Source of the DNA: a virus
DNA length: 42,991 bases
Virus record (IMG/VR): IMGVR_UViG_3300035660_000028
Span: 1 to 42,991 of that record
Reading direction: 5' to 3' (one strand)
Of this stretch, positions 4,170-30,540 are shown in pieces. The notes under the pieces are model-generated. The model had not been told where the DNA came from. It did no database searches and worked only from the letters and a program-made list of their open reading frames with translations. Position 1 is the stretch's first letter; each line of letters starts with the position of its first letter. The translations under genes and the position numbers were made by a program.

Positions 4170-4185
4170 AGGTATTTTTGTCCAT

Positions 4186-4213
4186 TTTAAGGTTAACCGC
4201 CGTTAACCTTAAA
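4186..4213. repeat. Inverted repeat 3 of a cluster
   Basis: TTTAAGGTTAAC / CGCC / GTTAACCTTAAA: perfect 12-bp arms with a 4-nt spacer, the longest palindrome in the gap before the terminase genes. There is no U-tract after it, so it is unlikely to be a terminator. A protein-binding, packaging (pac/cos) or replication site is more plausible. Confidence 0.8.
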
Positions 4214-4285
4214 TCGAGGTTGGTAATCACGACGGGCGGCCATGCGAAGGGCAATTCCCGAGATAATACCGCCCACAAATAAACC

Positions 4286-4748: not shown

Positions 4749-5950
4749 AAGTCTTTGGTTACGCACCGCGAGAAAGTCAGCGTTTGATCTTCGCGTCCCC
4801 CGCCAGGTTCCTGGCTATGGATGCGGGCAGGAGATGGGGCAAGACGTTGACGGGTCTGAACTGGCTCCTCGAAGGTGTCTGCAAAGTGCCGGGCGAGTAT
4901 TGGTGGGTAGCACCAATCTACAGCCAGGGCAAGATGGCCTTCCGCACATTTCTGTTGGCGGCGCAAAGGGGCAAGGCCGAGGACGCGTTCAAGAGCGTTT
5001 CCCATTCCGAGATGCGGGTCGAATTCGTGAACGGGGCGGCGATGACGTTCAAGTCTGCCGACAACCCCGACAACCTGCGCGGCGAAGGACTTCACCGCGT
5101 GGTCGTGGACGAGGCGGCTAGGGTCAAGCGCGAGGTCTGGGAAGAAGTCCTGCGTCCTGCCGTATCCGACACACACGGGCGCGTGCTGTTCATCTCGACA
5201 CCCAAAGGCAAGAACTGGTTCTACGAACTTTGGACACGCGGACAGGATGCGCTCCAGCCCGAGTTCAAGAGCTGGAAGTTCCCGACGGCGGACAATCCAA
5301 AGGTGAGCGCTGAGGACATTCTCCAGGCGCGGCAATCGCTTCCCGTCGATGTATTCAGCCAAGAATATCTAGCCGAGTTTCTTGAGAACAGCGCAGGCGT
5401 GTTCAGGAATATCGGGGCGTGCATCGGCTCGCACCGCGAGGAGCCGCTTCCCGGCAAGGAATACTACGGCGGACTGGACCTGGCGCGGCTCACCGACTTC
5501 ACCGTGCTGACAATCCTGGACGGCGCCGGCCGGCAGGTCTATTGGGACCGCTTCAACCTCCTGGACTGGACGGTCCAAAAGGATCGCATCATTCCGGTCA
5601 TCCGCAAATACAAGGCAAAGCTCAACGTGGACTCAAGCGGTGTCGGCGATCCAATCTATGAGGATTTACGGCGGGCCGGGCTGAATGTCGAGGGCTACAA
5701 GTTCACGGCTGACAGCAAGAAGAAGCTCATCGAGACGCTTATGATCGGCTTCGATCAGCAGAAGATTTCGATCCTGGACGAAGGAGTGCAGAAGAATGAA
5801 CTGGAGATTTTTGAATATCAGATCGGGTCATCGGGGATGGTCCACTATTCTGCGCCCGAGGGGTATCACGACGACTGCGTCATTTCCCTGGCCCTCAGTT
5901 ACTGGCTCATTGGAGGGCCGCGAGTAGAGCCCCGAATTTGGAGTATATAG
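4745..5950 (+). CDS. Terminase large subunit
   Basis: The 401-aa packaging motor has both domains. The ATPase part shows Walker A (DAGRRWGKT, 26-34, K33), Walker B (RVVVDE, 118-123) and a coupling motif (ISTPKG, 150-155). The RNase H-like nuclease part shows its three acidic positions in GGLDLA (D245), VDSSG (D296) and YHDD (D376/D377). It translocates DNA into the prohead through the portal and cuts the concatemer. The length is at the short end for the family but complete. It is preceded by its small-subunit candidate and followed immediately by the portal gene. Confidence 0.96.
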   Translation: MKVFGYAPRESQRLIFASPARFLAMDAGRRWGKTLTGLNWLLEGVCKVPGEYWWVAPIYSQGKMAFRTFLLAAQRGKAEDAFKSVSHSEMRVEFVNGAAMTFKSADNPDNLRGEGLHRVVVDEAARVKREVWEEVLRPAVSDTHGRVLFISTPKGKNWFYELWTRGQDALQPEFKSWKFPTADNPKVSAEDILQARQSLPVDVFSQEYLAEFLENSAGVFRNIGACIGSHREEPLPGKEYYGGLDLARLTDFTVLTILDGAGRQVYWDRFNLLDWTVQKDRIIPVIRKYKAKLNVDSSGVGDPIYEDLRRAGLNVEGYKFTADSKKKLIETLMIGFDQQKISILDEGVQKNELEIFEYQIGSSGMVHYSAPEGYHDDCVISLALSYWLIGGPRVEPRIWSI

Positions 5951-5951
5951 C

Positions 5952-8168: not shown

Positions 8169-8169
8169 T

Positions 8170-8748
8170 ATGTCAAAGAAGATCGAAATTAAGGATTTAG
8201 AGTTCAAGTTCACCGTCGGGGGTGAGGATGCCGATGCCGGGACATTCACGGGCTATGCGTCCATCTTCGATATGGTTGATACCTACGGAGACGCGGTTCA
8301 GCGGGGCGCGTTCAAGAAAACGCTCCGGGAAAAACAGCAGTTCCCGCTCCTCTGGTCCCATGACATCGCCAAGCCCATCGGCATTATCTCGGGGAAAGAG
8401 GACAAAAAAGGCCTGGAAGTTACGGGGCAACTGAACCTTGACGTCCAGCTCGCCCGCGAGATCCGCTCGCTCATGGCTCAGGGTGCCGTGACGGGACTCT
8501 CTATCGGCTACAACGCAGTCAAGGAACTCATCGACTCGGAGACGGGCATCAGGAATTTACAAGAGATCAACCTTTGGGAGATCAGCCCCTGCGTCTTTCA
8601 GTCGTGTCCCGACGCGGTGGTCGATGATGTAAAAAGCAAGGAACCGGGTGCGGAGCCGGGGCAACCCACTCCACCCACGATCAAGCCGGAAACGCTCCAC
8701 TTGATCGAGGAAATGACGGCCCGGATCAAGGAATACCTGAATTCATAA
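8170..8748 (+). CDS. Prohead (capsid maturation) protease
   Basis: A 192-aa HK97-type U35 serine protease. Catalytic histidine in LLWSHD (H64) and catalytic serine in GLSIGY (S111) are both present, with the conserved opening GTFTGYASIFDMVDTYGD. It processes the capsid N-terminal scaffold and itself during prohead maturation. The start is ATG 8170, right after the portal stop and downstream of GGAAGGAGG. The C-terminal 45 residues are proline-rich and probably form the self-removed tail. The capsid gene follows after a strong ribosome binding site. Confidence 0.95.
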   Translation: MSKKIEIKDLEFKFTVGGEDADAGTFTGYASIFDMVDTYGDAVQRGAFKKTLREKQQFPLLWSHDIAKPIGIISGKEDKKGLEVTGQLNLDVQLAREIRSLMAQGAVTGLSIGYNAVKELIDSETGIRNLQEINLWEISPCVFQSCPDAVVDDVKSKEPGAEPGQPTPPTIKPETLHLIEEMTARIKEYLNS

Positions 8749-8761
8749 CAGGAGGAACAAA

Positions 8762-9949
8762 TTGGAAATCGAAAAACAAGTCGCCGATCTTAATGGCGCA
8801 ATCAACAAGCTCATCGCCGACGTGCAGACCAAGCACGCGGAGATGGAGAACGGGAGGGCCTCGAAGGTAGCTTTCGACGAGTTCAAGGTCAATACCGACA
8901 AGCGGTATAACGAACTCTGCGACGAGGTCATCAAGCTCAAGACGCCTATCATCCAGGCCAGTGAGGCCGATGTGGCGAAGGCGGTCAAGACAAAGGCTTT
9001 CCAGGGCTGGCTCCGCAAGGGCAAGGGTGGTCTTAGCCCCGAAGAGCAGAAGGTTCTGACCATCGCGGACTCGGACCATGCCGGAGTGCTGGCTCCTTAC
9101 GAGTACGTGCAGCAGATCATCAAGGCCCTGACGCTCTATTCGCCTATTCGCACGGTTGCGAATGTAAGGCAGACGTCGGCCTATGCCGTCGAGTTCCCGA
9201 CGGAACTCACGGTCCCGGCAGCCACCTGGATTGCAGAGAGCGCAGAAAAGACCGAAACGACCGGGCTCACCTACGGCTTGACCGAACTCAAGACCTTCGA
9301 AATGGCGCAGCTTTTCAAGGCGACGCAGAAGATGCTGGAGGACAGCGCCTTCAACCTGGAATCTGAGATCGCCAGCGTCGTGGGTCGGAAGTTCGGAGTC
9401 CTGGAAGGGACGGCATTTTATTCCGGTAACGGTACCACGGCCCCTGAAGGCATCACCATCAACGCGACGGTTCTGGCCGACCATCGGGATGTCCTGACAA
9501 CCGACGTCCTGGTCTTCGACGACTTCATCGGCACGCAGTACCAGCTCGCATCGCCATACGTTGCAAACGCGACATGGCTCATGAACCGGACGCTTCTCGG
9601 AGTCGCCATTACGCTGAAGAGCGCTACGACCAATATGTACCTGCTCCAGCCGAATCTCCAGCAGGGTCAACCGGCCACGATCCTCGGCAATCCCGTTCTG
9701 GAATGCCCGGACTTTCCAGCCATCACATCCACTGTACTCAGCACCACACCCGGAGACGACGGTATCGTTTGTGCACTGGGCGACTTCAGGGCGGGCTACA
9801 CCATCATCGACCGGGTTGACATCAACATTCAGCGGCTCGTCGAGAAGTATGCCGAGTTCGGCATGATCGGGTTCTTGGCGCGGCGGCGGGTCGGCGGTGG
9901 GGTTCTTTTGCCGGAGGCCATCCAACTTCTCTCGAACATCAAGAGCTAA
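8762..9949 (+). CDS. Major capsid protein (HK97 fold), TTG start
   Basis: The 395-aa protein has an N-terminal coiled-coil delta (scaffold) segment to about residue 85, then the HK97 capsid core beginning around LTIADSDHAGVL, with the characteristic TWIAESAEKTETTGLTYG (E-loop/A-domain strand) and LESEIASVVGRKFGVLEGTAFYSGNG helix. The upstream protease should remove the N-terminal segment. The start is TTG at 8762, seven bases after AGGAGG (8750-8755); the first in-frame ATG is far inside. This gene is followed by a decoration-protein candidate and then a terminator. Confidence 0.95.
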   Translation: MEIEKQVADLNGAINKLIADVQTKHAEMENGRASKVAFDEFKVNTDKRYNELCDEVIKLKTPIIQASEADVAKAVKTKAFQGWLRKGKGGLSPEEQKVLTIADSDHAGVLAPYEYVQQIIKALTLYSPIRTVANVRQTSAYAVEFPTELTVPAATWIAESAEKTETTGLTYGLTELKTFEMAQLFKATQKMLEDSAFNLESEIASVVGRKFGVLEGTAFYSGNGTTAPEGITINATVLADHRDVLTTDVLVFDDFIGTQYQLASPYVANATWLMNRTLLGVAITLKSATTNMYLLQPNLQQGQPATILGNPVLECPDFPAITSTVLSTTPGDDGIVCALGDFRAGYTIIDRVDINIQRLVEKYAEFGMIGFLARRRVGGGVLLPEAIQLLSNIKS

Positions 9950-9965
9950 GGGAAGGGAGGCTAAA

Positions 9966-10412
9966 GTGATTAACACGATTACGAACCACAAGGTAGTCAG
10001 CCTCCTGACGCCCGTCCTCGCCAACAACACGGCGGAGGGAACGGGCTTGGCCAAGGATCGCTGGGGGTACGGCGATGTCCTGATGATCGCCCACGTCGGC
10101 ATTTCGGGCGACACGCTCAGCGGCACGACCTACTGGACGATCTCGTTCCAGGAATGCGCCGTGACGACACCGGGAAGTTTCACGACCATCGCCCAGGCGG
10201 ACCTTGAGGGCGGGACGCCAACCTGGGTCATTAACGAGCCTACCGAGGACGACATGACCATCACCCGGATGTATCGGGGGAGTTTGCGCTATGTGCGCAT
10301 TCTCTTCACGCAGACAGGCACGCACACGAACGGGACGCCGCTCAGCGCGGTTGCGATCATGGGGCAACCGAATCATATCCCGGTGACACAAGACACAGAA
10401 GTTCAAGCGTAG
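9966..10412 (+). CDS. Head-associated protein, possible decoration protein (GTG start)
   Basis: A 148-aa beta-rich protein beginning at GTG 9966 behind GGGAGG. Threonine-rich strands and the absence of charged helices suggest a virion surface protein. A position directly after the capsid gene and before a transcription terminator means it is transcribed with the capsid at high level, as expected for a capsid-decorating protein. No family is recognised from sequence alone. Confidence 0.7.
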   Translation: MINTITNHKVVSLLTPVLANNTAEGTGLAKDRWGYGDVLMIAHVGISGDTLSGTTYWTISFQECAVTTPGSFTTIAQADLEGGTPTWVINEPTEDDMTITRMYRGSLRYVRILFTQTGTHTNGTPLSAVAIMGQPNHIPVTQDTEVQA

Positions 10413-10418
10413 TTTATC

Positions 10419-10453
10419 GGGCGGGGGGGCCACGACGCTTCCCGCCCATTTTT
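10419..10453 (+). terminator. Intrinsic terminator after the capsid genes
   Basis: GGGCGGG (10419-10425) pairs with CCCGCCC (10441-10447) and is followed by ATTTTT. It lies 6 bp after the stop of the decoration candidate, separating head genes from connector genes. Confidence 0.85.
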
Positions 10454-10469
10454 ACAGCGGGAGGGCACC

Positions 10470-10715
10470 ATGCCGATTGAGTTTAATAAGACGCCCGGCG
10501 GCGTCAATGCGCTTCGGGCATCGGGTAAGACTATGCGGGTCAGGATGAAAGAGACGCGGAACGCTTACGAGGCCGGAAAGTCTTATTACCTCCCGGTGGA
10601 CTTGGCGTTCATGTACATCCGAAACGGCCGGGCCTATGAGGATAAGTCTATCGATAGCCCGCCGGAGGTAAAGGTTGCGCCCGTGCCCGAGAAGAAAGGC
10701 AAACGGAGGAAATAA
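10470..10715 (+). CDS. Small basic head-connector-region protein
   Basis: An 81-aa protein with a central segment MRVRMKETRNAYEAGKSYYLPVDLAFMYIRNGRA, typical of short phage proteins between capsid and gp6-like connector genes, and a lysine/proline-rich tail. Ribosome binding site GCGGGAGG. Its stop overlaps the next start by one base (TAATG). The precise function is unknown. Confidence 0.7.
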   Translation: MPIEFNKTPGGVNALRASGKTMRVRMKETRNAYEAGKSYYLPVDLAFMYIRNGRAYEDKSIDSPPEVKVAPVPEKKGKRRK

Positions 10716-11275
10716 TGGCAGACCTGGTCACTCTGGCGAACGTCAAGAGCTATCTCTGGCCGGGGGAGTCTATCACGACCTGGGACGCCATCCTGCCAAG
10801 TATCATCTCGGCGGTCTCCGAGCAGGTCAACCGAGAGGTGGGATGCGTCCTTTTAAGCGCAACGTACACGGCGGAGCTTGTCAGCGGGGACGGGACGTCT
10901 GCATTGAAGCCCCTGAACTGGCCGATCACGGCGGTTACGTCCATAGAGGACAACTATGGGGCCGAATACGTGGAAGGTAACGACGCGGATTTCGTCATTG
11001 AGGCGCTCTGTCTGCGGAAGGTCAACGGCGTCTGGCCTGAGGGCAGGGGAAACTTCACCGTCACCTATACGGCGGGCTATGCGACAATTCCGGCGGATAT
11101 TGCGCTTGTCTGCTATGAGCTGATCGCTCGGAAATGGAAGACGATGAAAGAGCAGGGCTGGGGCGAGAGCGGGCGGACGATGCCGGACGGGTCAACGAGC
11201 ACGGTCAACGCGGACGGCGAGTTGACGAAGGCACATAAGGCGATCCTGGCGAAATTCAAGCGGGTTACTGTATGA
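10715..11275 (+). CDS. Head-tail connector protein (HK97 gp6-like)
   Basis: A 186-aa protein with the usual features of gp6-like adaptors: an N-terminal helix pair (LANVKSYLWPGES, ISAVSEQVNREVGC), a beta section with LNWPITAVTSI and a helical C-terminus after GYATIPADIALVCYELIARKW. These form a ring under the portal and continue the DNA channel. Coupled on both sides (TAATG before, ATGA after). Confidence 0.82.
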   Translation: MADLVTLANVKSYLWPGESITTWDAILPSIISAVSEQVNREVGCVLLSATYTAELVSGDGTSALKPLNWPITAVTSIEDNYGAEYVEGNDADFVIEALCLRKVNGVWPEGRGNFTVTYTAGYATIPADIALVCYELIARKWKTMKEQGWGESGRTMPDGSTSTVNADGELTKAHKAILAKFKRVTV

Positions 11276-11832
11276 CGGAAGGCGTGGGGCTGAGGGTGGA
11301 CTTCAGCGGCGCGATCCGCAAGACGGAGACGCTCAAGGCGCTGCCCAAAGCTCATAAATACCAGGCGACGTCCTGGACGGCAGAGACGATCAAACTCCTC
11401 ATGCGCTCGGCGGCGGATATGCAGAAGTCATCCAAGTACAAGAAGAAAACCAGTATGCTCGGGCGCAACATCGGGTTCCTTGTAGCGGCCGGAGACGAAC
11501 GCTGGCAGATAGCGATAGGGACAGGGATCGGGGGAAAGCAGAGCGTCCCGTACGCGAGGATTCAGGACAAGGGCGGGACGACGCATCCGAACGTCACGGA
11601 CAGGATGCGGAAGTGGGCATGGTGGGCGTTCTACAAGTTCAAGGAGGAGCGGTTCAAATGGCTTGCCCTCACGAAGAAGTCTCAGCTCACCGTGAACGTC
11701 CCGGAGTCGAAATGGTTCTCCGGCGTAATAGCGGAACAGGAGCCACGGCTTTCGGCGATGATGCAGAAGCCCGTGGTCTTGAGGCTTGCGGAGATGATGG
11801 CAGGAAGTTCCGCAGGGAAATTGGCAAAGTGA
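11272..11832 (+). CDS. Neck/tail-completion protein (HK97 gp10 / Mu gpG-like)
   Basis: A 186-aa basic protein with a YARIQDKGGTTHP-NVTDRMRKWAWW section, the kind of motif found in HK97 gp10-like and Mu virion-morphogenesis proteins, which join tail to head. Gene order (after gp6-like, before tail genes) agrees. ATGA-coupled to the connector gene. Confidence 0.7.
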   Translation: MTEGVGLRVDFSGAIRKTETLKALPKAHKYQATSWTAETIKLLMRSAADMQKSSKYKKKTSMLGRNIGFLVAAGDERWQIAIGTGIGGKQSVPYARIQDKGGTTHPNVTDRMRKWAWWAFYKFKEERFKWLALTKKSQLTVNVPESKWFSGVIAEQEPRLSAMMQKPVVLRLAEMMAGSSAGKLAK

Positions 11833-11847
11833 ATTTAGGAGGATAAC

Positions 11848-12354
11848 ATGGCAAAAGGAAAAATCAAAGCCGACAACGTCGGCGTGCGCGGATTCTACCG
11901 CGTCCAAATCGAGGAACCCTTCGGAAAAGGCAACGGGAAAATCGTTGGGGATTCCGGCTGGTGCGAAAACCAGATCACGAACATCGGCAAGCAGGACTTC
12001 CTTTGCGCGAACCTTGCGGGGACGACCGGCTCGAAGCGCGTCCTGGGGATCAATATCGGATCGGGCACTGTTCCCGGCGCGGCTGCGACAACGCTCGATG
12101 GTGAGATCAGCACGGCGAAGCGGATGGGCGGGGCGGACATGACGGTTTCCATTGACACGAGTTCAGCGGTGTCGTTCCTGGCCACGTTCTATTCCAGCCG
12201 GACCTTTCTCGCCAGCTCATCTTCACTTCGGAACATCGGGTTGTTCGACTGCACGACAGCCGCGGGGTCGCTCTTTGCGGGCTCAACCTACGCCGTCTCT
12301 ACCTGCGACACGAACCAGAACGTCAACGTAACCTATCGCATTCAGTTCAGCTAA
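11848..12354 (+). CDS. Structural protein of unknown type
   Basis: A 168-aa beta-rich, Ser/Thr-rich protein with good ribosome binding site (TTAGGAGG). Phrases such as KVGI-like NIGSGTVPGAAATTLDGEI and RNIGLFDCTTAAGSLFAGSTYA resemble small phage virion surface domains. It lies between neck genes and the accessory cassette. No confident family. Confidence 0.7.
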   Translation: MAKGKIKADNVGVRGFYRVQIEEPFGKGNGKIVGDSGWCENQITNIGKQDFLCANLAGTTGSKRVLGINIGSGTVPGAAATTLDGEISTAKRMGGADMTVSIDTSSAVSFLATFYSSRTFLASSSSLRNIGLFDCTTAAGSLFAGSTYAVSTCDTNQNVNVTYRIQFS

Positions 12355-19776: not shown

Positions 19777-20117
19777 ATGCCTATCTCGGCTATTACATCG
19801 ACCGCTGGGAGTCGATCCTAAAGCCGGAAGATCACCAGCACGGGATAGGCGAATCGACAGGGGAATGCGTAAACTGCCAACTTGATGCGATGGCGGCGAA
19901 ACTGAGCGCATTCGAGGTCGGGGCGTGGAACTGGTACTGCGAGAACGTGAATCACTTTACGCTTGAGGTGGGGATAGTAGCCGACGAGTTTCGGCGTGCG
20001 GGGCTTCGCGGCCCGGCGCGGAGGCTGGCGCTGTCGGCGTTGAACGCTGTCCACCTTGCATTCCAGGCTGTCGCGGCGGAGCGAAGGAATAAGGCTCAGG
20101 GAGAATCGAATGGCTGA
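19378..20117 (+). CDS. Tail assembly chaperone, -1 frameshifted long form (gpGT-like)
   Basis: A -1 slip on the A_AAA_AAT heptamer at 19767-19773 makes ribosomes bypass the TAA at 19774. They read TTA-AAT-GCC onwards without a stop to TGA at 20117, giving a 246-aa fusion. The downstream part alone would start at ATG 19890, but the open frame continues back to the heptamer without interruption and contains no good start near its beginning. In lambda and most siphoviruses the G:GT ratio set by this slip is required for tails. The extension includes ECVNCQ and a helical KLSAFEVGAWNWY segment, and ends 8 bp inside the tape measure gene. Confidence 0.85.
19767..19773 (+). promoter_or_regulatory. 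-1 ribosomal frameshift slippery site
   Basis: AAAAAAT read as A_AAA_AAT in the zero frame fits X_XXY_YYZ. The stop follows directly (19774-19776). The open -1 frame and the position between tube and tape measure support real use. Confidence 0.85.
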
Positions 20118-22230
20118 CGTAAAATATATCGTCGAATGTGACGCTTCCGGGGCCTTGAAGTCTATCAAAGACCTGGATGGGGCGATCAATCAGGCCGCCG
20201 GAACGACGGCTAAGGCTGGCGGATCGTCCGGGCCATTCGGCAGCCTCTTCGCTCAGTTTACTGCCGGGACGCTCGTAGCCTCTGCGCTTCAAAAAGGGAT
20301 CGGTGCACTTAAGGGCGTTGTCGAAAGTTCAATTACGGCCGCTATCGAAGCTGAGCAAGCCGAGAATAATCTGAAGGCCGCCCTAGAGATCACAGGCCGG
20401 ACTGTTGAAGGGAACATCCAGCACTATAAGAAGTTCGCCGCTGAACAGATGCGGGCGACGACCTACACGGATGAGCAGGTCATGGCCAGCCAGGCGCTTC
20501 TCCTCCAACTCACGAGCCTTGACCAGCAGGGACTTGACCGGGCGACGAGGGGCGCGATGGGTCTGGCGTCGACGATGGGGATAGACCTTCACAGCGCGAC
20601 CATGATGGTCACGAAGGCGATGGAGGGGAACTACGGAGCGCTGGGCCGGGTCGGGATTAGGGTTGCCGAGAACTTGACGGCGGAACAGAAGCAGGCATCA
20701 CTCCTCGATCAGTTGAATAAACTCTATTCGCGCTCCACGGCTGAGACGGAGACCTTCGGAGGGGCGCTGAAGCAATTAGCTAATAACTGGGATGAGGTCA
20801 AGGAGGCGGCCGGGACGGCGATCATTAAGACCAAGGGACTTGGAGAAGCTGTCGTAGCCTTCAATAGGGCGATATCGGATTTCGTCGCTTCCGGCGGGTT
20901 CGCGCGTTTTCTTAATGACCTCATTCGGTCCATGCCATTTATTGGTAAATTTTCGGACGCCTTGAAATTGATGGCACTCTTGATGCGCATTCAGACCGCA
21001 GAATTCGAGCATGCCTCAAGAGTCAATGCCGGATTGGTGATTACGGCTGATGCATTAGGGAAGGCTTTCAAGGGCGCAGCTCCCATGCTCAAAATCTTCG
21101 GCGTGGACTTCAAGAGCCTCGTCGATATGTTCGTGAGCGCCCCGGCCAAGATCAATCAGACCGGGACAGCCGTCCATAACTTGACGGCGGCGGAGATCAA
21201 GGCGGCGAAGGAAGCGGTTGACGCGAAGAAGAAACTTGCGGCTGCGGTCCAGGAGATCATCAATAAATACAATCCTCTGAAGGCGGCGATGACGGCCGTG
21301 TTCAACGAGCAGAAGGTGCTGACGGCAGCGTTTAAGGCCGGGGCTATCAGTGAGGCAACATACAGGATCGGCATGGATGCCAGCACGAAATCACTCAGGG
21401 CGTTCGGCGAGACGATCATCGACACGGCCATTCCGGCCTATAACAAAATGGAGGCGGTTGCCAAGAAGGCGATTGCCAACATGGCGGCTGGGCCGCCGAA
21501 ATTAACGAAGTCGTGGACTACGAATGTCGCCAAATGGGTTGCGGCAAATCAGCAAGCCTTCGAAAAAATTCTAGGTATTGCCTCGACCGTCACTGCCGCG
21601 ATTGACGCTATCATGACGCAGAGCACGACAAACCGAATGCTTTTGCTGGACCAGGAATATCAACATCGGCTCGAACTGATTAATAACAGCAAGATGAACG
21701 AGGAGGAAAAGGAGAAGGCTATCACGGCCCTGGAAGCCGAGTATCAGATGAAGCGCCGGGCGGAAGAGGTGAAGGCGGCACGGGCGCGGAAGGCCATCGC
21801 CATCTTGACGGCCATTATCAACACGGCTGAGGGCGTCACGAAGGCTTGGGCGCAGGGCGGCGCTATCTTCGGGCCGATCCTTGCGGCCATAGTTGCGGCG
21901 GCCGGGGCTTTCCAGATCGCCCTCATCAAGAGCCAACCGATCGGAGCGGCGAAGGGGGCCATCTTCAAACAGAGAGCGCTCCTGATGTCGCAGGCAAGCG
22001 GTCAGGAATACGAGGTGGCCGAGGGCGGGGAGGCTGAGATTGTCAGTTCTCCGCGCCAGCTCCGGGAAGCCATCATGGGGCCGGGCGGCACGGCCAGTGG
22101 ACCCGGCTTTCTTGAGATCCACCTCTATATCGACGGGAAAGAGATGAAGGACTTTATCGTCAAGACCATCCGCCAGCGGGGCAGGTCGGAACTCATGCTG
22201 ATTCATCCACGGGCGGTGAGGGCATACTGA
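20110..22230 (+). CDS. Tail tape measure protein
   Basis: A 706-aa protein, starting at ATG 20110. The N-terminal part has TAAIEAEQAENNLKAALEITG and GALKQLANNWDEVKEAAG, typical of tape measures, then helical stretches. Near residues 570-620 hydrophobic segments (AIAILTAIINTAEG, GPILAAIVAAAGAFQIALI) match the membrane-active region that helps DNA cross the host membrane. The protein sets tail length; at about 0.15 nm per residue a tail of roughly 100 nm would be expected. The C-terminal 80 residues are a globular domain. Confidence 0.88.
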   Translation: MADVKYIVECDASGALKSIKDLDGAINQAAGTTAKAGGSSGPFGSLFAQFTAGTLVASALQKGIGALKGVVESSITAAIEAEQAENNLKAALEITGRTVEGNIQHYKKFAAEQMRATTYTDEQVMASQALLLQLTSLDQQGLDRATRGAMGLASTMGIDLHSATMMVTKAMEGNYGALGRVGIRVAENLTAEQKQASLLDQLNKLYSRSTAETETFGGALKQLANNWDEVKEAAGTAIIKTKGLGEAVVAFNRAISDFVASGGFARFLNDLIRSMPFIGKFSDALKLMALLMRIQTAEFEHASRVNAGLVITADALGKAFKGAAPMLKIFGVDFKSLVDMFVSAPAKINQTGTAVHNLTAAEIKAAKEAVDAKKKLAAAVQEIINKYNPLKAAMTAVFNEQKVLTAAFKAGAISEATYRIGMDASTKSLRAFGETIIDTAIPAYNKMEAVAKKAIANMAAGPPKLTKSWTTNVAKWVAANQQAFEKILGIASTVTAAIDAIMTQSTTNRMLLLDQEYQHRLELINNSKMNEEEKEKAITALEAEYQMKRRAEEVKAARARKAIAILTAIINTAEGVTKAWAQGGAIFGPILAAIVAAAGAFQIALIKSQPIGAAKGAIFKQRALLMSQASGQEYEVAEGGEAEIVSSPRQLREAIMGPGGTASGPGFLEIHLYIDGKEMKDFIVKTIRQRGRSELMLIHPRAVRAY

Positions 22231-22231: not shown

Positions 22232-22996
22232 ATGGCAATTTGTAAATTCCTATACGAAAACTTGTGGAAGGGCATCGAGGGAGTGGACTTCGAAACAACC
22301 GTATCCTCGGAAGGAACGAATTTTCCGGTGACAAATACACAGCGCCGGATCCCCGGCCGGAGGTGGAGGACAACCGGCTGCGTAGAGGACCAGTCCATTG
22401 TCCGTAATTTCTATTCAGAGATCACCGTCGAGGCATTCTGCATTCGTGGTAATAATTTCTCTGCCGATGCTGTGATCACGATACAGGGGAACAATGAGGA
22501 TACCTGGGACGAGCCGGGGTTCGAGGCAATCCTGAGCCCTAACAATGAACGGCTGATGGCCGCATATTTCGACCCCCCGGTGACTTATCAGTATTGGAGG
22601 CTCCTGATTTCGGACCCCACGAACGCGGACGGCTTCATTGAGGTCGGGCCGATTTTTCTCGGTCCGGCATTCACCCCGGAAGTGAATTATAGAAACGGCG
22701 GCGCATTCACCCCGGAGGATTTGAGCGTCATCACGATAAGCGCGGGCGGACAGCGAACGGTCGTCGTCCAGGACCAGCCGGGGGCGTGGCAGTATTCGTT
22801 CAGGACATCGGAGAAAGCGGCGTTCGAGTTAATTCGCCAGGCCGTCGGCAGGTCGCTCCCATTCTGGTTCTGCGAGGATCCGGAAGCGGACGACCCGAAC
22901 GAGGCGACGCAATATGTGGTTGCCACGGCCTGGAAGTGGGACCACATTCACTTGAATGTCTGGACCTTGGCCCTGACTTTGGCCGAAGAGATGTAG
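22232..22996 (+). CDS. Distal tail protein (Dit-like)
   Basis: A 254-aa protein between tape measure and tail-tip genes, the invariant place of the distal tail protein that forms the ring at the end of the tube and holds the tip complex. It shows a discoidin/galactose-binding-like N-terminal section (FPVTNTQRRIPGRRWRTTG, FCIRGNNFSADAVITIQGNN, YWRLLISDPTNADGFIEVG) and a C-terminal beta domain. Galactose-binding-like folds are common in Dit proteins. It could also contact host sugars. Confidence 0.72.
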   Translation: MAICKFLYENLWKGIEGVDFETTVSSEGTNFPVTNTQRRIPGRRWRTTGCVEDQSIVRNFYSEITVEAFCIRGNNFSADAVITIQGNNEDTWDEPGFEAILSPNNERLMAAYFDPPVTYQYWRLLISDPTNADGFIEVGPIFLGPAFTPEVNYRNGGAFTPEDLSVITISAGGQRTVVVQDQPGAWQYSFRTSEKAAFELIRQAVGRSLPFWFCEDPEADDPNEATQYVVATAWKWDHIHLNVWTLALTLAEEM

Positions 22997-22997: not shown

Positions 22998-25900
22998 ATG
23001 AATTTCGCCGATCTGATCGAGCTCCCCGATTCCCGCCGATTGGTCGTCTGCGAGCACTATCCGGCGATGGAGGTCGAGGGCTTGGAGTGGACGGCGACCG
23101 AGGGCGGCTCCCATTACGCCGAGATGACGGACGGGGAAATCATCGAGGTTTTGGAGGCCGGGGCCGAGTATGCGGAGGTTTTTTCGGCGGCGGATTGTGA
23201 CGCGACGGCCTCGACCTTCTTCATGGACCTGGAGAATAAACGGCTTTATTTGCACACTTCGACCGGAGTTATCCCTTCGCATCAAACCGGGGGGGTTTAT
23301 GACTTTTGCATTCTGGCCTATTTCATCATCGGGTTCAGCGACCGCATGGACTCGAGCGGCAAGGACCCGGTGTTCGAGCCGGAGATTGAGAAGCTACTCG
23401 ACGGCGGCCTGGAAGACTGGACGGACGCGACGGCGCTTGCGCATTGGACGAAGAGCGAATCGTCCGGCTCATCCATAAGCCGGGAGGAGACGGAAGTCCA
23501 TAGCGGAGCGTATGCTGCGAAGTTCACGGTCGATGCGGGGGACCTCTGGTTCGAACGCATGGAGTATGCGACGGATGCTGAGGCTCAGGCGGCCTATGTC
23601 AACGAGGGGGACACGATAGGCGGAGTGATAACGCATGTCGGCGGTTATCGAATCCATACGTTTTATGAAAGCGGGACCTTCCAGGTTCTGTCCGGCTCCG
23701 TCGATGTCGAGGTGCTGGTGGTTGCTGGTGGGGGTGGTGGCGGAGGCGATGGCCCGGGCGAGGGCGCGACCTGCGCCGGAGGCGGTGGCGGAGGCGGACT
23801 TCTATATGACGACGCTTATTCGGCCACGGGAAGCATCCCCGTAACGGTGGGCGAGGGTGGCGAAGGCGGCGCAAAAGGGGACCGGTATGGCTGGGGAGAT
23901 GACGGGGAAGATTCCGTATTCGGCACGATGACGGCTATCGGCGGCGGAGCTGGAGGCGGCTACATAAAGCCCGGTAAGCCCGGCGGGTCGGGCGGAGGCG
24001 GCGGTCTGAAAGAAAGCGCGGCCGGCGGTGTCGGCACGGTGGGTCAGGGCCACGATGGCGGGGATTCCGAGCCGGCAAATACCCACGCCTATTACGCCGG
24101 TGGCGGCGGAGGCGGAGCTGACGAAGCCGGGGCTGATGGGGTAGAGCCCTCGATAGGCGGCAAGGGCGGCGACGGCCTGGAGTATTTCGGCTCTTATTAT
24201 AGCGGAGGCGGAGGCGGAGGAGCGAAGGTCACGGCCGGACTTGGCGGCCTCGGCGGTGGAGGCAACGGTAGTGCATCGACGGGAGCGGCTAACTCCGGGA
24301 CACCCAACACGGGCGGCGGAGGCGGCGGAGCGAGGAGGGATGGCGCAGGCGGCAAGGGCGGCAAGGGCATCGTCATCATCCGGATCGCGGATATCCCGTC
24401 TTTGGAGTCCTATTCGGAAGCCGCCATCAAGCAAGAGGGCGATTATTCCTTAAAAGGCGTCGCGCTCATCGCGACGAGCCTGAACAAGACCCTGATCCGG
24501 ACGATTTCAACGCCCATTAATCTGACGGACATCAACACCATCAAATTCGATATCCGGGCCTCGCGGACCGGCTCGAATATCAAGGTCGGAATCCACGACA
24601 GCGGCGGGACGACGACGGAGACGACGCCGAACATCGTCGCGGCCGATACCTGGCAGACCATCACCTGGGACATCTCCGGCGTCTCGAACGCGAACAAGGA
24701 CGCGATAGATACAATCATCATTACGGTCGTCAATGCGGGTGCGGCCAATACGTTTTATATCGACAAGATGTATCTTCCGTCGGCCCATACCGGAGCGCTT
24801 TCCCTTTCTCAAACCGGGATCATCCTACGGCCGGAGTGCAAATGCCGATCGAGGTTCCGGCTGAAAAGCACGGTCGCCTCGCCGGGCGTGATGGTAAAGT
24901 GGGGCATCCAGGATAGCGCCGGGAATGTCTGGTATAACGCCACAGCCGAAACGTGGGGCGCGGAAACTTACAATGAGGCCTCGGGCATCACGAGCGCGGG
25001 CTGGACCGAAGTTGCAGTCGACTTCCCGGCAGATGATGGTTATTCGAATTATAAGTTCATCGTCAAGACGGGGACAGTGGACCGGGGCGAGGTTTATAGT
25101 TTTTACTTGGATGACTGTTCACTCATCAGAATTCTGAAGCCTATGCCCTACCGGGCCATTATCCCGCAGGGTGGAGCGCCGCAAATCACACAGAGCGTCG
25201 GGGATTATTACATCGGGGATGTCGTGTTCTCTGCGGGAGAAATCCGATACGGGAATGACGGCTGGTGGTATGAAGCACTCGTCGATTATATCTGGCACCT
25301 GAAAAAGTTCTGGCTGAAGGCCGGGGCCATCGACTCGGATTATTCGGAACTCGGGACGCTCTTCTGGGGCCGGACGAGTCGTCCGGTCGTAACGGACCGG
25401 GAGGCGACCTTCGAGGTCGTGGACGCGCGGGAGGGGCTATTCGGGTCCATCCCGTCAGTCCTCTTTGATCTGACGACCTATCCGAACATGGACCCGGAAG
25501 AGGTAAAGAAGGCGAGGGCTATCCCAATCCTTTTTGGCGAGCTCGACAACATCACGCCTATCTGTATCGACACGACGATCTGGAAATATAAGATTGCGGG
25601 CCATGAACTTGAGGAGATCAGCGCGGTCTACAAGGATGGCGTCACGCTCACCCTGACCACGGACTATACGGTTGACCTGGCCAACGGGGAATTCACGCTC
25701 GTCGCGGACCCGGAGAACGGCGTCATCACCTGCAAGGCGAAGGGCGCCAAGTGCAAAATCCAGGACGGGACCTACAGCGCCGTCGGCGCGGACATTTTAT
25801 TCGCGGCCCTGACGACGTTCAACTCGCCTGCCATCCCGAAAAGCCAGATTGACTTGGTATCGTTTCTGGACCTTCAGGCCAACCGGATTCAGCCGTTGGC

Positions 25901-27263
25901 CGCCTACCTGACGGACCAAGCCCCGGTGCTGGATTTCGTTCGGAAAATCCAGGACTCGAACGTGTTTCATCTCATTCCGCTCGCCAACAGGACCTTCGGC
26001 GCGTTCCGTTATGCGGTCGGGACGACGGGGAGCGAAGTCCGCATCGACCAACATGACTTCGCATCATTCGCCCTGAGGTATGACACGGCCCCGGTCCGAA
26101 AGACCGTGATCATAAAATACGGCCAGGATCCCACGACTAAGAACTGGCTGGCGGAAAAGGTGACGGATGCGAATATCGGGTATCGCTATGACCAAGCGGA
26201 AATTTTAGAGAAAGAGACCTTACTGACGGTCGCTTCCGATTCGGCGACGCTGGGACAGTTTTATCTGAACATCATCCGTTCGCCGGAGAAGCGAGTATCG
26301 GGGACCGTCCCGGCTTTGCTACTGGGCCATCGGCCGGCCGAGAAAATCTTCGTGTCCAAATCTATCCGAGACGGCGAAGGCGTCACCCAGACCATCCTTG
26401 CCGAAGAAGTCTATCGGGCGCTGACGCTGGTCAAGAACGCCGGGCCGGCGACCGTCGAAGTCGAGGCCGTCCTGGACATTCAGAGCACGGGCGCGATGCA
26501 CAATAACATCTCCCATGTGGACACCCACAGCGACAGCCATACGGATGTCCTTCACGTGGATGAGCATGGTGACGGGGATCACGGCGACAAGCATGCCGAT
26601 GTCGTCCATTCCAACAGTTATAGCGATAACCCCTATGATGATCACGCTCATGTCGATGTCCACAACGATGCCCACACAGATATTGAACACACGGACACCC
26701 ACGGGGATGCCGCATACACGGATACGGCCCACGGGAACGCCGGCCATTCGGATAACCCCCACGAGGATATCCCCCATACGGACGGGGCGGGCCACTCGGA
26801 TTCGCCTCATGTCGATTCCCATTCGGATATGGCCCACCAGGATTTCTATAAGGACATCCACGTGGATGACGACACAGGACTTCCTTATCGCGATTCCCAC
26901 GGGGATTCTTATAATGATTCCCATAGGGACTCCCATTCGGATACGCCTCACGGGGATTCCGCCTACGTGGACGTCCCCCATGAAAACAGCCCCCACGAGG
27001 ACCTCAGCCACACGAATACCGCCTACGTGGATTCCCGCCATACCGACGTCCATGCGAACACTTCCCACACGGATGTCCATACAAATAACCACGGGGATAC
27101 TCATACGGATGTCCCCCCCGAAGATAGGCACTATGATCGGGCATATCGGGATTATCACGCAGACGGAGGCCACGACGATACGGCCCACGAGGACGTGATT
27201 CACGAGGACGTCGCGCATGTAAATGATCACGGAAATATCGCTCACGGAGACTCGGAGTATTAA
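22998..27263 (+). CDS. Tail-tip protein with glycine-rich adhesin domain and C-terminal H-x-D repeat tract
   Basis: A 1421-aa multidomain protein at the distal tail. N-terminal domain: 1 to about 110. A glycine-rich domain (about 235-455) opens with TFQVLSGSVDVEVLVVAGGGG, the pattern of phage glycine-rich receptor-binding domains. Two carbohydrate-binding-like beta domains follow (about 460-710; ISTPINLTDINTIKFDIRAS and a paralogous segment near 635). Residues about 715-1165 have the look of a central tail hub (AIPILFGELDN, PVLDFVRKIQDSN, KTVIIKYGQ). From residue 1173 to the end the sequence is almost only [H/Y]-x-[D/N] triplets with one- or two-residue spacers. The stop overlaps the start of a radical SAM gene (TAATG). 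I infer receptor binding and that the tract is a modification substrate or metal-binding tip. Confidence 0.85.
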   Translation: MNFADLIELPDSRRLVVCEHYPAMEVEGLEWTATEGGSHYAEMTDGEIIEVLEAGAEYAEVFSAADCDATASTFFMDLENKRLYLHTSTGVIPSHQTGGVYDFCILAYFIIGFSDRMDSSGKDPVFEPEIEKLLDGGLEDWTDATALAHWTKSESSGSSISREETEVHSGAYAAKFTVDAGDLWFERMEYATDAEAQAAYVNEGDTIGGVITHVGGYRIHTFYESGTFQVLSGSVDVEVLVVAGGGGGGGDGPGEGATCAGGGGGGGLLYDDAYSATGSIPVTVGEGGEGGAKGDRYGWGDDGEDSVFGTMTAIGGGAGGGYIKPGKPGGSGGGGGLKESAAGGVGTVGQGHDGGDSEPANTHAYYAGGGGGGADEAGADGVEPSIGGKGGDGLEYFGSYYSGGGGGGAKVTAGLGGLGGGGNGSASTGAANSGTPNTGGGGGGARRDGAGGKGGKGIVIIRIADIPSLESYSEAAIKQEGDYSLKGVALIATSLNKTLIRTISTPINLTDINTIKFDIRASRTGSNIKVGIHDSGGTTTETTPNIVAADTWQTITWDISGVSNANKDAIDTIIITVVNAGAANTFYIDKMYLPSAHTGALSLSQTGIILRPECKCRSRFRLKSTVASPGVMVKWGIQDSAGNVWYNATAETWGAETYNEASGITSAGWTEVAVDFPADDGYSNYKFIVKTGTVDRGEVYSFYLDDCSLIRILKPMPYRAIIPQGGAPQITQSVGDYYIGDVVFSAGEIRYGNDGWWYEALVDYIWHLKKFWLKAGAIDSDYSELGTLFWGRTSRPVVTDREATFEVVDAREGLFGSIPSVLFDLTTYPNMDPEEVKKARAIPILFGELDNITPICIDTTIWKYKIAGHELEEISAVYKDGVTLTLTTDYTVDLANGEFTLVADPENGVITCKAKGAKCKIQDGTYSAVGADILFAALTTFNSPAIPKSQIDLVSFLDLQANRIQPLAAYLTDQAPVLDFVRKIQDSNVFHLIPLANRTFGAFRYAVGTTGSEVRIDQHDFASFALRYDTAPVRKTVIIKYGQDPTTKNWLAEKVTDANIGYRYDQAEILEKETLLTVASDSATLGQFYLNIIRSPEKRVSGTVPALLLGHRPAEKIFVSKSIRDGEGVTQTILAEEVYRALTLVKNAGPATVEVEAVLDIQSTGAMHNNISHVDTHSDSHTDVLHVDEHGDGDHGDKHADVVHSNSYSDNPYDDHAHVDVHNDAHTDIEHTDTHGDAAYTDTAHGNAGHSDNPHEDIPHTDGAGHSDSPHVDSHSDMAHQDFYKDIHVDDDTGLPYRDSHGDSYNDSHRDSHSDTPHGDSAYVDVPHENSPHEDLSHTNTAYVDSRHTDVHANTSHTDVHTNNHGDTHTDVPPEDRHYDRAYRDYHADGGHDDTAHEDVIHEDVAHVNDHGNIAHGDSEY
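26514..27260 (+). repeat. Tract of about 50 [H/Y]-x-[D/N] triplets
   Basis: In-frame coding repeat over the last 249 residues of the tail-tip protein. By hand count there are about 35 H-x-D, nine Y-x-D and eight H-x-N triplets, separated by one or two (rarely three) residues. The middle position varies freely (G, T, S, V, E, A). Codons differ between copies, so the pattern is held at protein level. The simple DNA also keeps long spurious frames open on both strands. Confidence 0.93.
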
Positions 27264-28501
27264 TGGGACTACATTTCAAGCTAATGGATTGTAACGGCCT
27301 ATGTCGGTCATGCTATGAGCGGCGAATCCGGAAGACGCAAGGCCGGACCGGCTATAACCTCGTAGCCATGCTGGCGACGCTTCGGCGGGAGGCCGCGAAA
27401 GAGACGCCGGAGAATAGGCGGAAGTATTCGGTCCCCTGCGTCCACGGCGGGGAGCCGCTGATGTTCCCGTTGGCGGACTTGCGGACGATTCTTAAGACGA
27501 TGCATGAGCTTTATGGCCGGTCCTCCATACAGACGAATGGCCTCTTGATATCAGATGATCATCTGGCGATGTTCAAGGAGTTTAACGTCGGGGTCGGGGT
27601 TTCAATCGACGGTGACACGGTGGAATTGAATCAAGGCCGCTGGAATGACATTGATCAAATTCCACGCCTCAAGGATGCTCCGCTGATCCGTGAAGCGTTG
27701 AAGGAAATGGAGAAAACGGGGACTCGAGTAACGTTGACAAATATGAAGCGGGCCCGGGCGGCCGGGCTGTGCGTCTCGGCCATCGTGGTTCTCAGGCGAT
27801 ACAACGCGACCCCGGACCGACTCCCGGAACTTAAGAGGTTCCTGCTGCGGCTCGAAGCGATGGGCGTCACGTCGATTCGGACAAACGAGGTTATCGTTTT
27901 CGAGGACGAATTCGGGGACGAAGAACTGACGCCTACCGAACTCGGCCGGGCTTTCGTCTATCTCGCGGACCTTTGCTTCGCGGATCCCGGCCGGGCCTGG
28001 TATCCTTACCGGGACGTCGTAAAGATGCTGGTCGATGGCGGGGATTCGACCTGCACGTTCAACGGATGCGACATCTGGCGGACCCAAGCCGAAACGGCCA
28101 TCATGGAGGACGGAGCCATCGGCGCCTGTCTCAAAGGCGGGGCGGCCCTGGACGGGATTCAGGCGCTTGCCGCAGAGGAGCCCGGTGCGGAAAGGGTTCA
28201 CGCCTTGGCGATGATCCCCCGGGAACTCGGCGGCTGTAAGGGATGCGAGTTCTGGGGCTTATGCGGCGGCGGGTGTCCCGGCTCGGGAATCGATAATGAC
28301 TGGCGGAACCGGACCCGATTCTGCGAAGCGTATAAGACACTTTTCCAGCACGTGCGCACTCGGCTCAAGGGGATCATGCCGGACATTGCGCTTAAGGAAT
28401 CGTGTGATCGGACGCGGAGATGGGCCGGAGGCTCCGGCCACGGCGATGCGCACGGCGACGAGCACGGGGACAAGCCACACGGAGATCATACCGATGTTTG
28501 A
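27263..28501 (+). CDS. Radical SAM/SPASM peptide maturase with C-terminal H-x-D tail
   Basis: A 412-aa enzyme. The radical SAM cluster motif is CNGLCRSC (C10, C14, C17; CX3CX2C), followed by GGEP (62-65) for SAM binding. The C-terminal SPASM domain has the complete seven-cysteine pattern: C-X14-G-X4-C (CDIW ... GAIGAC), then CX2CX5CX3C (CKGCEFWGLCGGGC), then a last FCEAY cysteine, which bind auxiliary 4Fe-4S clusters. SPASM enzymes cross-link, epimerise or oxidise residues in peptides and proteins. After a GGSG linker the protein ends with five H-x-D units (393-411), matching the tract on the preceding tail protein. TAATG coupling to that gene makes it the likely substrate. There is no obvious peptide-recognition (RRE) domain. 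Confidence 0.92.
   Translation: MGLHFKLMDCNGLCRSCYERRIRKTQGRTGYNLVAMLATLRREAAKETPENRRKYSVPCVHGGEPLMFPLADLRTILKTMHELYGRSSIQTNGLLISDDHLAMFKEFNVGVGVSIDGDTVELNQGRWNDIDQIPRLKDAPLIREALKEMEKTGTRVTLTNMKRARAAGLCVSAIVVLRRYNATPDRLPELKRFLLRLEAMGVTSIRTNEVIVFEDEFGDEELTPTELGRAFVYLADLCFADPGRAWYPYRDVVKMLVDGGDSTCTFNGCDIWRTQAETAIMEDGAIGACLKGGAALDGIQALAAEEPGAERVHALAMIPRELGGCKGCEFWGLCGGGCPGSGIDNDWRNRTRFCEAYKTLFQHVRTRLKGIMPDIALKESCDRTRRWAGGSGHGDAHGDEHGDKPHGDHTDV
28439..28495 (+). repeat. Five H-x-D units at the end of the radical SAM enzyme
   Basis: Codes for HGD, HGD, HGD, HGD and HTD with spacers of none to two residues, directly after a GGSG linker. The same motif makes up the tract of the neighbouring tail protein. 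Confidence 0.92.
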
Positions 28502-29387
28502 TATGAAATTGATGGAGGGACTTGACTTAGCGCCGTCGTGTCGGACGGTCTGGTTGAGTGAAGAGGCTCGACGGGTCTGGGCTCCCATCTTTCCTAAGCT
28601 CGGCGCGATGGTATCGGACCTTGAGGTCTTGAGCGTAGCACGTTGGCAGCGGCCCTGCGCTTGGCAGACAATCGGCGAAGATCAATTCCCGAGGCTTGCG
28701 GCAGCATGGGCGGAGATGGGCCTGGTCAGCCTGCCGATCAAGCGGGTCCGAAACTTTACGGGGTTCGCTCATAGGCATGAGGAGCCGCGGCCCGGGGAAA
28801 GGGCGAGCCTTTGCGTCATCGTATCCCGGACGCTCAAGGATACCCTGCGATTCAAGTCGTCCTTCGAGAAGGGAGATAATGACGTGCAGGGTGAACTCCT
28901 GGGATTCCCGAAATGCTGCCGGACGTTCTTCTGCGAGACCTGGGCCAAAGGATATTTTGATCCGGTCTGGCAGGCGGCCTTGAACTCAAAGCATACGATT
29001 ATCGGGGAAAGGCACATAAGGGTCGAGAGCCATCCATTTGCGAATCCGGTCTTGCGCTATGCAGGTCTTCGGGTCGGATTCCATATTCCCCATGCTCTCG
29101 ACTGCCAAGAGACGATTGCCGTTGCAACAGAGAGAATGAAACTCGCTAAGGCGACCGATCCAAATCTAACGAAACTTTTAGGCGGTCTGCTTTCCATGCC
29201 GATGAGCTGGGATGTCTATCATGGCGTCGCGGTTGTGAGGACACCGATATTTTATTTGATTGTACCCTCGGTTCCGGCGGTTGAGCGGTATGTCGTCGAG
29301 GTCGTGAGCGAGCCTGAATTCCGGCCGCGGGAGGGCGTGAGGGGGATCGAGTTCCCATTCGAGGAGGGCCAAGATGTGGGCGGATAA
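28494..29387 (+). CDS. GFPxCC-motif protein coupled to the radical SAM gene
   Basis: A 297-aa protein starting at ATG 28494 inside the end of the radical SAM gene (8-bp overlap; ATG 28503 is an alternative). Its centre has LLGFPKCCRTFFCETW (137-142 for GFPKCC), a motif I associate with DUF483-like proteins. Further cysteines at 16, 55, 107 and 147 could bind metal or a cofactor. The rest is mixed alpha/beta without a transmembrane segment. Being embedded in the operon with the tract protein and its presumed maturase, it may be a second modifying enzyme, a partner, or a substrate-delivery protein. The family assignment is from memory and the function is unknown. Confidence 0.75.
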   Translation: MFDMKLMEGLDLAPSCRTVWLSEEARRVWAPIFPKLGAMVSDLEVLSVARWQRPCAWQTIGEDQFPRLAAAWAEMGLVSLPIKRVRNFTGFAHRHEEPRPGERASLCVIVSRTLKDTLRFKSSFEKGDNDVQGELLGFPKCCRTFFCETWAKGYFDPVWQAALNSKHTIIGERHIRVESHPFANPVLRYAGLRVGFHIPHALDCQETIAVATERMKLAKATDPNLTKLLGGLLSMPMSWDVYHGVAVVRTPIFYLIVPSVPAVERYVVEVVSEPEFRPREGVRGIEFPFEEGQDVGG

Positions 29388-29937: not shown

Positions 29938-30540
29938 ATGAACATGGGACAAGCAAGAAAACGTACGTTGGTTCGATGCAAATCCTGCGGGAAGGAATGG
30001 TTAAAGAACGCCTATGCAATTAATCGATGGAGTGGTCTCTGCAAATCATGTGCTTATAGAGGAAGACGCCTTTCCCCCGAACATCGAGCGAAACTTGTTG
30101 GTAGACCATTTTCAAAAGAAACGAGAATGAAAATGTCTGCGGCCAAGAAGGGGAAGCCGATTGCATCGTGGATCACCGAAAAAGCTCACATAGCTTGGCG
30201 GGGTCAGCACCATACAGAAGATTGGAAGCGGGTACAAGCCGAAAAGAAAAAGGGATCGAGGAATCCCAACTGGAATAATGGTTCTTCCCTAGAACCCTAT
30301 GGTCTATCATTCGATGAACAATTAAGAGAAGCAATCCGAGAACGAGATAATCGTGCTTGTCGAATATGTGGAGAAAAAGAAAACGGACGCCGCCTGGCCA
30401 TTCATCATATTGATTACAATAAAAACAATGACGAATGCACCAATCTTCTTTCGCTATGCGCACCATGTCATGCGGCAACTAATCAAAAGCGGAAATATTG
30501 GCAGGCAAAGTTTTCTTCGGAGATCAATAATGTTCTATGA
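29938..30540 (+). CDS. HNH homing endonuclease with NUMOD3-type DNA-binding repeats
   Basis: A 200-aa protein: N-terminal zinc finger (C14, C17, C35, C38), NUMOD3-like basic motifs (LSPEHRAKLVGRPFSKETRMKMSAAKKG, about 44-110), then an HNH nuclease (CRICGEK at 141, HHID at 156-159, CAPCH at 174-178). Such enzymes nick or cut DNA and spread themselves between phages. The gene is visibly more AT-rich than its flanks and overlaps the start of the downstream hydrolase by 11 bp, both signs of insertion. Confidence 0.9.
   Translation: MNMGQARKRTLVRCKSCGKEWLKNAYAINRWSGLCKSCAYRGRRLSPEHRAKLVGRPFSKETRMKMSAAKKGKPIASWITEKAHIAWRGQHHTEDWKRVQAEKKKGSRNPNWNNGSSLEPYGLSFDEQLREAIRERDNRACRICGEKENGRRLAIHHIDYNKNNDECTNLLSLCAPCHAATNQKRKYWQAKFSSEINNVL

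What the first reader, a model, noticed from the sequence alone, without database searches (positions are those of the whole stretch)
22998..28501. Tail-tip protein with about 50 [H/Y]-x-[D/N] triplets coupled to a radical SAM/SPASM maturase: a virion-modifying RiPP-like system
Seen: the last 249 residues of the 1421-aa tail-tip protein are built from [H/Y]-x-[D/N] triplets with one- or two-residue spacers. The next gene (TAATG overlap) encodes a complete radical SAM enzyme (CX3CX2C, GGEP, full seven-cysteine SPASM pattern). Known: radical SAM/SPASM enzymes that form three-residue cyclophanes (triceptide maturases) link an aromatic residue, including Tyr and His, to the third residue of an aromatic-x-x motif; His-Xaa-Ser repeat systems also pair repeats with radical SAM enzymes. 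Inference: the enzyme may install many cross-links along the tail tip, giving a rigid, protease-resistant or metal-binding needle. The exchange of His for Tyr and of Asp for Asn at matching places suits an aromatic-to-Cbeta link better than simple metal binding. A RiPP-type enzyme acting on a phage structural protein would be new to me.
Basis: partly seen in the sequence, partly recalled or inferred. Interest (0 to 1): 0.95.

Follow-up and report, generated by a model that had tools for sequence, protein, structure and literature searches.

The report
Phage tail repeats with radical-SAM maturase
Many tailed phages carry a three-gene set in which a tail or fibre protein ends in dozens of aromatic-x-Asp/Asn triplets and the adjacent radical-SAM enzyme most likely cross-links those triplets, which would make it a peptide-modifying pathway applied to a virus particle protein.

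Summary
The last 254 residues of the 1421-aa protein hold 53 [HY]-x-[DN] triplets (5000 shuffles: mean 14.7, maximum 24), and 44 of its 45 His have D/N at +2. The next gene is an intact radical SAM/SPASM enzyme.

Of 58 distinct enzyme clusters with enough flank, 56 have a tract and 58 a DUF483 protein; the other two have short runs on a neighbouring protein. A scan for HxD-coding DNA alone gave 17 irregular tracts; 16 have this enzyme, the 17th is a fragment. The first triplet position varies among H, Y, F and W, the third between D and N, rarely E. That fits three-residue cyclophane chemistry better than metal binding. Some sets add an aKG-HExxH hydroxylase, as in the ChlB/ChlH cyclophane pathway.

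Kolesnik et al. 2024 noticed the module in Thermus phages but not the repeats, and suggested DNA modification. Best reading: a multi-site cyclophane-type maturation system for phage tail proteins. Chemistry and virion location are inferred. Cultured Thermus phages make it testable.

The parts
22998..27263 (+). 1421-aa tail protein (probable tail tip or fibre), presumed substrate
   Evidence: gene order and PHROG/Pfam hits; homologues with the same tract in L133, L134, L135, L209
26499..27260 (+). C-terminal tract, residues 1168-1421: 53 [HY]-x-[DN] triplets with spacers of one or two residues
   Evidence: shuffles; substitution pattern
27263..28501 (+). radical SAM/SPASM maturase, 412 aa
   Evidence: tree; model; fold; Cys invariant
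27290..27313 (+). radical SAM cluster motif C10-x3-C14-x2-C17
28052..28324 (+). SPASM region with eight auxiliary-cluster Cys (C264 to C354)
28439..28498 (+). enzyme's own HxD tail HGDAHGDEHGDKPHGDHTDV, disordered in the model
   Evidence: (66 of 76 clusters have at least one Ar-x-D/N in the last 70 aa)
28494..29387 (+). DUF483-like partner, 297 aa, with invariant P-x-C-C and a later Cys
   Evidence: 34% identity to Cumys_11; 58 of 58 clusters
20056..22230 (+). tape-measure-like gene upstream (context)
22232..22996 (+). 254-aa gene between tape measure and substrate (context)
   Evidence: phrog_8610, unknown function

Best explanation
The three genes are a protein-maturation cassette. The radical SAM/SPASM enzyme binds the HxD-rich tail of the preceding virion protein and, site by site, abstracts the beta-hydrogen of the third residue (Asp/Asn) and joins that carbon to the ring of the first residue (His, or Tyr/Phe/Trp). 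This gives a chain of three-residue cyclophanes, -2 Da each. The DUF483 protein is a constant partner (substrate delivery, or a further step; in about half of the relatives it carries a fused methyltransferase-like domain). In some relatives an aKG-HExxH enzyme probably beta-hydroxylates the product. The result would be a stiff, chemically hardened distal end on the tail tip or fibre. Shown here: the genes, motif, conservation and co-occurrence. Inferred: that the tract is the substrate, the product, and the role in the virion.
For: Adjacency and overlap of the three genes. Co-occurrence starting from the enzyme: 56 of 58 well-flanked clusters with a tract and 58 of 58 with DUF483. Starting from HxD-coding DNA alone: 16 of 17 irregular tracts have the enzyme, the other is on a 17.6-kb fragment. 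Control: 1 of 68 loci with other SPASM enzymes has any such run, a simple YSD repeat. The tract-associated enzymes form one clade (57 rows, SH-aLRT 99). The motif is aromatic, not histidine as such: whole tracts use F-x-N (L155), H-x-N (L148) or W/Y/H mixed (L219). In the window's own family 23 of 37 changes at position 1 are to Y or W and none to Q, R or N; at position 3, 39 of 52 are to N and 3 to E; position 2 and spacers change in most comparisons. Cyclophane-forming families (AmcB, YhhB, GrrM/OscB, XyeB, FxsB) match all 17 tested enzymes. Known cyclophane enzymes join Tyr C3 to Asp Cbeta (YxdB) and His C2 to Ala or Arg Cbeta (HaaB, YhhB) (PMC11002830). ChlB, a multiple cyclophane synthase, is among the best fold matches; its aKG-HExxH partner hydroxylates Asp and His on the preinstalled cyclophane (PMC12636437), and aKG-HExxH homologues occur in 11 of the loci here.
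Against: No biochemical data. Scores to the cyclophane families lie far below their cut-offs (71 against 445 bits for YhhB), and anaerobic sulfatase maturase, which makes formylglycine, is an equally close relative. A cyanobacterial locus has enzyme and DUF483 but no Ar-x-D/N tract. Two bacterial loci have only short runs. A few triplets with non-aromatic first residues occur among the others (L-V-N, A-V-N).
Confidence: 0.72

Rival explanations
1. The enzyme acts on the tract but does different radical chemistry: for example a His-nitrogen to Cbeta bond, epimerisation, or oxidation or hydroxylation of Asp/Asn, not a ring-carbon to Cbeta cyclophane.
For: Sulfatase maturase and DynA match the enzymes as well as the cyclophane families do; all scores are far from any named family. 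Dynobactin synthase is reported to make both C-C and C-N links (PMC11002830).
Against: Phe and Trp at position 1 and the fixed i to i+2 geometry favour a ring-carbon link; a nitrogen link cannot serve Phe.
Confidence: 0.18
2. The tract is a metal-binding or plain charged or flexible spike tip, and the enzyme modifies something else in the particle or host.
For: His/Asp-rich sequence is a classic metal ligand set; some phage spike tips bind metal (own knowledge).
Against: Near-perfect enzyme-tract co-occurrence both ways; F-x-N and W-x-N tracts cannot be metal sites; D goes to N, not E.
Confidence: 0.06
3. The module modifies DNA, as proposed for Cumys and phiMa (Kolesnik et al. 2024, PMC11437467).
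For: The authors report homologues of rSAM and DUF483 near deazapurine genes in cyanobacteria; one cyanobacterial pair here lacks the tract.
Against: The authors' 'protein of unknown function' is the HxD-repeat protein, so the constant third member is a repeat protein, not a DNA-modification gene; the enzyme is a SPASM peptide-maturase type.
Confidence: 0.03

Closest known systems
Triceptides and three-residue cyclophane-forming enzymes (YxdB, HaaB, YhhB, OscB/GrrM, XncB/XyeB, FxsB, AmcB)
   Same: Radical SAM/SPASM enzyme beside its substrate; aromatic-x-(D/N/...) motif; Tyr and His accepted in known members (PMC11002830).
   Different: Substrate here is a large tail protein with tens to about a hundred sites, no small precursor peptide in the window; DUF483 partner; scores far under family cut-offs.
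ChlB/ChlH multiple cyclophane synthase with aKG-HExxH beta-hydroxylase
   Same: Close solved fold; cyclophanes plus Asp/His beta-hydroxylation by an aKG-HExxH enzyme (PMC12636437); aKG-HExxH homologues in 11 of our loci.
   Different: In ChlBH the two domains are fused; here they are separate genes or, as in the window, the hydroxylase is absent; identity about 16-18%; the primary papers were not held, so their partners could not be compared.
rSAM module of Thermus phages Cumys and phiMa (Kolesnik et al. 2024, PMC11437467)
   Same: The same three genes.
   Different: The text I searched does not mention the HxD repeats and proposes DNA modification.
His-Xaa-Ser repeat system (HxsA/HxsB/HxsC)
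   Same: Repeat of a His-x-residue triplet paired with radical SAM enzymes (PMC9062424).
   Different: Third residue is Ser there; two radical SAM enzymes; the HxsB model matches only 11 of 17 members here and ranks low.
Anaerobic sulfatase-maturating enzyme (anSME)
   Same: Closest sequence and fold in the PDB; eight auxiliary Cys as for two auxiliary [4Fe-4S] clusters.
   Different: Acts on one Cys/Ser of a sulfatase (own knowledge); repeats and DUF483 partner are absent there.

Membership tests
Triceptide / three-residue cyclophane maturation system | radical SAM enzyme with SPASM auxiliary clusters | tested here: met
   3 + 8 Cys invariant in 57 sequences
Triceptide / three-residue cyclophane maturation system | substrate with aromatic-x-(D/N/...) triplets next to the enzyme | tested here: met
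Triceptide / three-residue cyclophane maturation system | enzyme passes the curated cut-off of a named cyclophane family | tested here: not met
   best 71 bits against 445 (YhhB)
Triceptide / three-residue cyclophane maturation system | small precursor peptide | tested here: not met
   substrate in the window is 1421 aa; small HxD peptides exist only in some bacterial relatives
Triceptide / three-residue cyclophane maturation system | three-residue cyclophane product (-2 Da per site) | not testable with these tools
   needs mass spectrometry and NMR
His-Xaa-Ser system | H-x-S repeats with HxsB-type enzyme | tested here: not met
   third residue D/N (97% after His); HxsB model weak, 11 of 17 members
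ChlBH-type cyclophane/beta-hydroxylation system | aKG-HExxH beta-hydroxylase with the radical SAM enzyme | tested here: not met
   no candidate in the window; present in 11 related loci
DUF483 (PF04467) | passes Pfam gathering score | tested here: not met
   window protein 12.9 bits against 25; relative in L105 passes with 27.7
Thermus phage rSAM module | HxD protein + rSAM + DUF483-like protein in a gene row | tested here: met
   34% identity; 33% identity

The most novel reading that the evidence does not exclude
A widespread class of viral structural protein made of poly-cyclophane rods: phages encode a dedicated three-gene cassette that installs tens to more than two hundred covalent cross-links on their tail proteins (phiLo has three such proteins), with related cassettes in bacterial chromosomes acting on other large proteins and on small peptides.
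Probability: 0.6. Interest if true: 0.95.

Novelty: new variant of a known kind. Interest (0 to 1): 0.9.

Why it matters
If true, it moves RiPP-type radical SAM chemistry from small peptides to virus particle proteins, with 50 to about 100 sites in one chain. It would explain a recurring but unannotated cassette in tailed phages and give DUF483 proteins a context. It points to a natural source of highly cross-linked protein rods and to enzymes that accept His, Tyr, Phe and Trp at the first position. Cultured Thermus phages make the main claim testable with ordinary virion proteomics.

Tried and rejected
DNA modification (suggested by Kolesnik et al.): rejected as main reading, because their third gene of unknown function is the repeat protein. 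Metal binding alone: rejected on substitutions and on F/W tracts. Membership in YhhB, GrrM/OscB, FxsB, XyeB, HxsB: rejected on curated cut-offs. PDB sequence search for the tail-tip hub region found nothing. Fold search of the DUF483 partner found no functional neighbour (best 2guk, unknown function, E 0.02). Most hits of the HxD DNA scan are short or simple tandem repeats and were set aside by a fixed rule. Loci that first looked like enzyme without tract (L148, L155, L175) were a threshold effect: they carry H-x-N, F-x-N or mixed tracts. The primary ChlB/ChlH paper was not held, so its content is taken from a paper that cites it.

Full report
WHAT IS THERE. The 42,991-base window is a tailed-phage record (terminase, portal, major head protein and tape-measure-like genes by PHROGs). 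After the tape-measure-like gene come a 254-aa gene, then a 1421-aa protein (22998-27263), then a radical SAM/SPASM enzyme (27263-28501, TAATG overlap), then a 297-aa DUF483-like protein (28494-29387, overlapping the enzyme's stop). The last 254 residues of the 1421-aa protein hold 53 [HY]-x-[DN] triplets at spacings of 4 or 5; shuffles of the same residues give 14.7 on average and never more than 24 in 5000. The enzyme has all cysteines for the radical SAM cluster and eight for auxiliary clusters, invariant in 57 relatives.

IT IS A RECURRING CASSETTE. tblastn in 50,697 phage records finds the enzyme only in Thermus phages phiLo, Cumys and phiMa; each also has HxD-repeat protein(s), a DUF483-type protein and an enzyme with an HxD tail. 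Searching IMG/VR with an enzyme alignment gave 78 loci, and GTDB genomes gave about a dozen true relatives. Grouped by similarity, 58 clusters have at least 2.5 kb on both sides: 58 have the DUF483 protein and 56 a run of eight or more aromatic-x-D/N triplets, mostly within 100 bases of the enzyme. The two others (bacterial L214, L218) have short runs at the C-terminus of a large neighbouring protein. A further tract, in L115, fell below that rule and its 19-kb record has no enzyme either; that record is also short. In 68 loci holding other SPASM enzymes, one has a run, a simple YSD repeat. The tract-associated enzymes form one clade. Caveats: the enzyme profile was first built from tract-bearing loci, and both collection scans were capped.

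WHAT THE MOTIF IS. Over 101 non-redundant tracts (15,653 residues), His is followed at +2 by D (84%), N (13%) and E (0.2%); the tract definition favours D/N, so the rarity of E and the substitution test carry more weight. Some tracts are mainly F-x-N (L155), H-x-N (L148), or mixed W/Y/H (L219, L216). Within the window's own family, position 1 is kept in 406 of 443 comparisons and 23 of 37 changes are to Y or W; position 3 goes to N 39 times and to E 3 times; position 2 differs in 300 of 530 comparisons and the spacer in 313 of 497. Across 158 homologous pairs, dominated by one clade, H goes to F 211, Y 45, W 6, Q 6, R 0, and D goes to N 430, E 5. Selection therefore seems to see an aromatic ring and an Asp/Asn two residues on.

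MECHANISM. Published three-residue cyclophane enzymes join Tyr C3 to Asp Cbeta (YxdB) and His C2 to Cbeta of Ala or Arg (HaaB, YhhB) (PMC11002830). All 17 tested enzymes here match AmcB, YhhB, GrrM/OscB, XyeB and FxsB models, but also DynA and sulfatase maturase; for the window enzyme every score is far below its cut-off. The AlphaFold model (pLDDT 89.6) is closest to anSME and to ChlB. ChlB is titled a multiple cyclophane synthase, and its aKG-HExxH partner beta-hydroxylates Asp and His on the preinstalled cyclophane (PMC12636437). aKG-HExxH homologues occur in 11 of our loci, and four of five scanned pass the TIGR04267 cut-off. The simplest reading is a multi-site cyclophane-type maturation of the tract. 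The DUF483 partner has an invariant P-x-C-C and a later Cys, with a further Cys or His, so a metal site is possible; 48 of 105 copies carry a methyltransferase motif. Its role is unknown; delivery or a further step are guesses. The enzyme's own tail may be self-modified or help bind its partners; this is inference.

LIMITS. Nothing here shows a chemical product, and the virion location is inferred from gene order. One cyanobacterial genome of 339 sampled has the enzyme, together with DUF483 but without an Ar-x-D/N tract; its neighbours carry LSTHDQ heptads. Novelty was checked in an open-access library only: ten searches found no report of the repeats or of radical SAM modification of a phage tail protein, and one paper that noted the gene module in Thermus phages and suggested DNA modification.

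Noticed in passing
L213, L217 (Acidobacteriota), L211 (Nitrospinaceae), L220 (Aminicenantes): Radical SAM and DUF483 are fused in one protein; L213 and L217 have 70-100 aa HxD peptides and an aKG-HExxH gene beside it, like a free-standing RiPP cluster.
   Followed up: partly
L214 (SAR324) 8176-12195; L218 (Plesiocystis pacifica) 2404-7284: Large proteins of 1340 and 1627 aa end in only a few HxD/FxD triplets beside the same enzyme; a possible minimal version.
   Followed up: partly
L008 (Thermus phage phiLo) 15774-21023: Three proteins with 44-101 HxD triplets each lie close to one enzyme; they are annotated as hypothetical.
   Followed up: partly
L155 2896-3942; L148 11826-12515; L219 1969-3079: Tracts made mainly of F-x-N, H-x-N, or mixed W/Y/H triplets; L148 also has two enzymes and two DUF483 genes.
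   Followed up: yes
L301 (cyanobacterial genome G039) 6326-10050: Enzyme and DUF483 pair flanked by two related proteins with THDQ-type heptads and no Ar-x-D/N tract.
   Followed up: partly
L069 7820-8518; window 29938-30540: A homing-endonuclease-like ORF (by eye GIY-YIG) between enzyme and DUF483 in L069, and an HNH/NUMOD3 gene shortly after the cassette in the window.
   Followed up: no
L168 2439-3071, L155 5445-6197, L150 3364-3996: An uncharacterised family of about 210-250 aa sits between DUF483 and the enzyme in a group of related contigs.
   Followed up: no
window 23673-24386 (residues 226-463 of the tail protein): A Gly-rich domain (PF21722) lies in the N-terminal half of the tail protein.
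   Followed up: no
L241 3741-4622: A Y-S-D repeat run lies about 3 kb from an unrelated SPASM enzyme in Xanthocytophaga; could be chance or another aromatic-x-D system.
   Followed up: no
L046 10391-13315: Two adjacent enzymes of the family; the first ends in repeated copies of RPHGDHTDQALVEGIVD.
   Followed up: no
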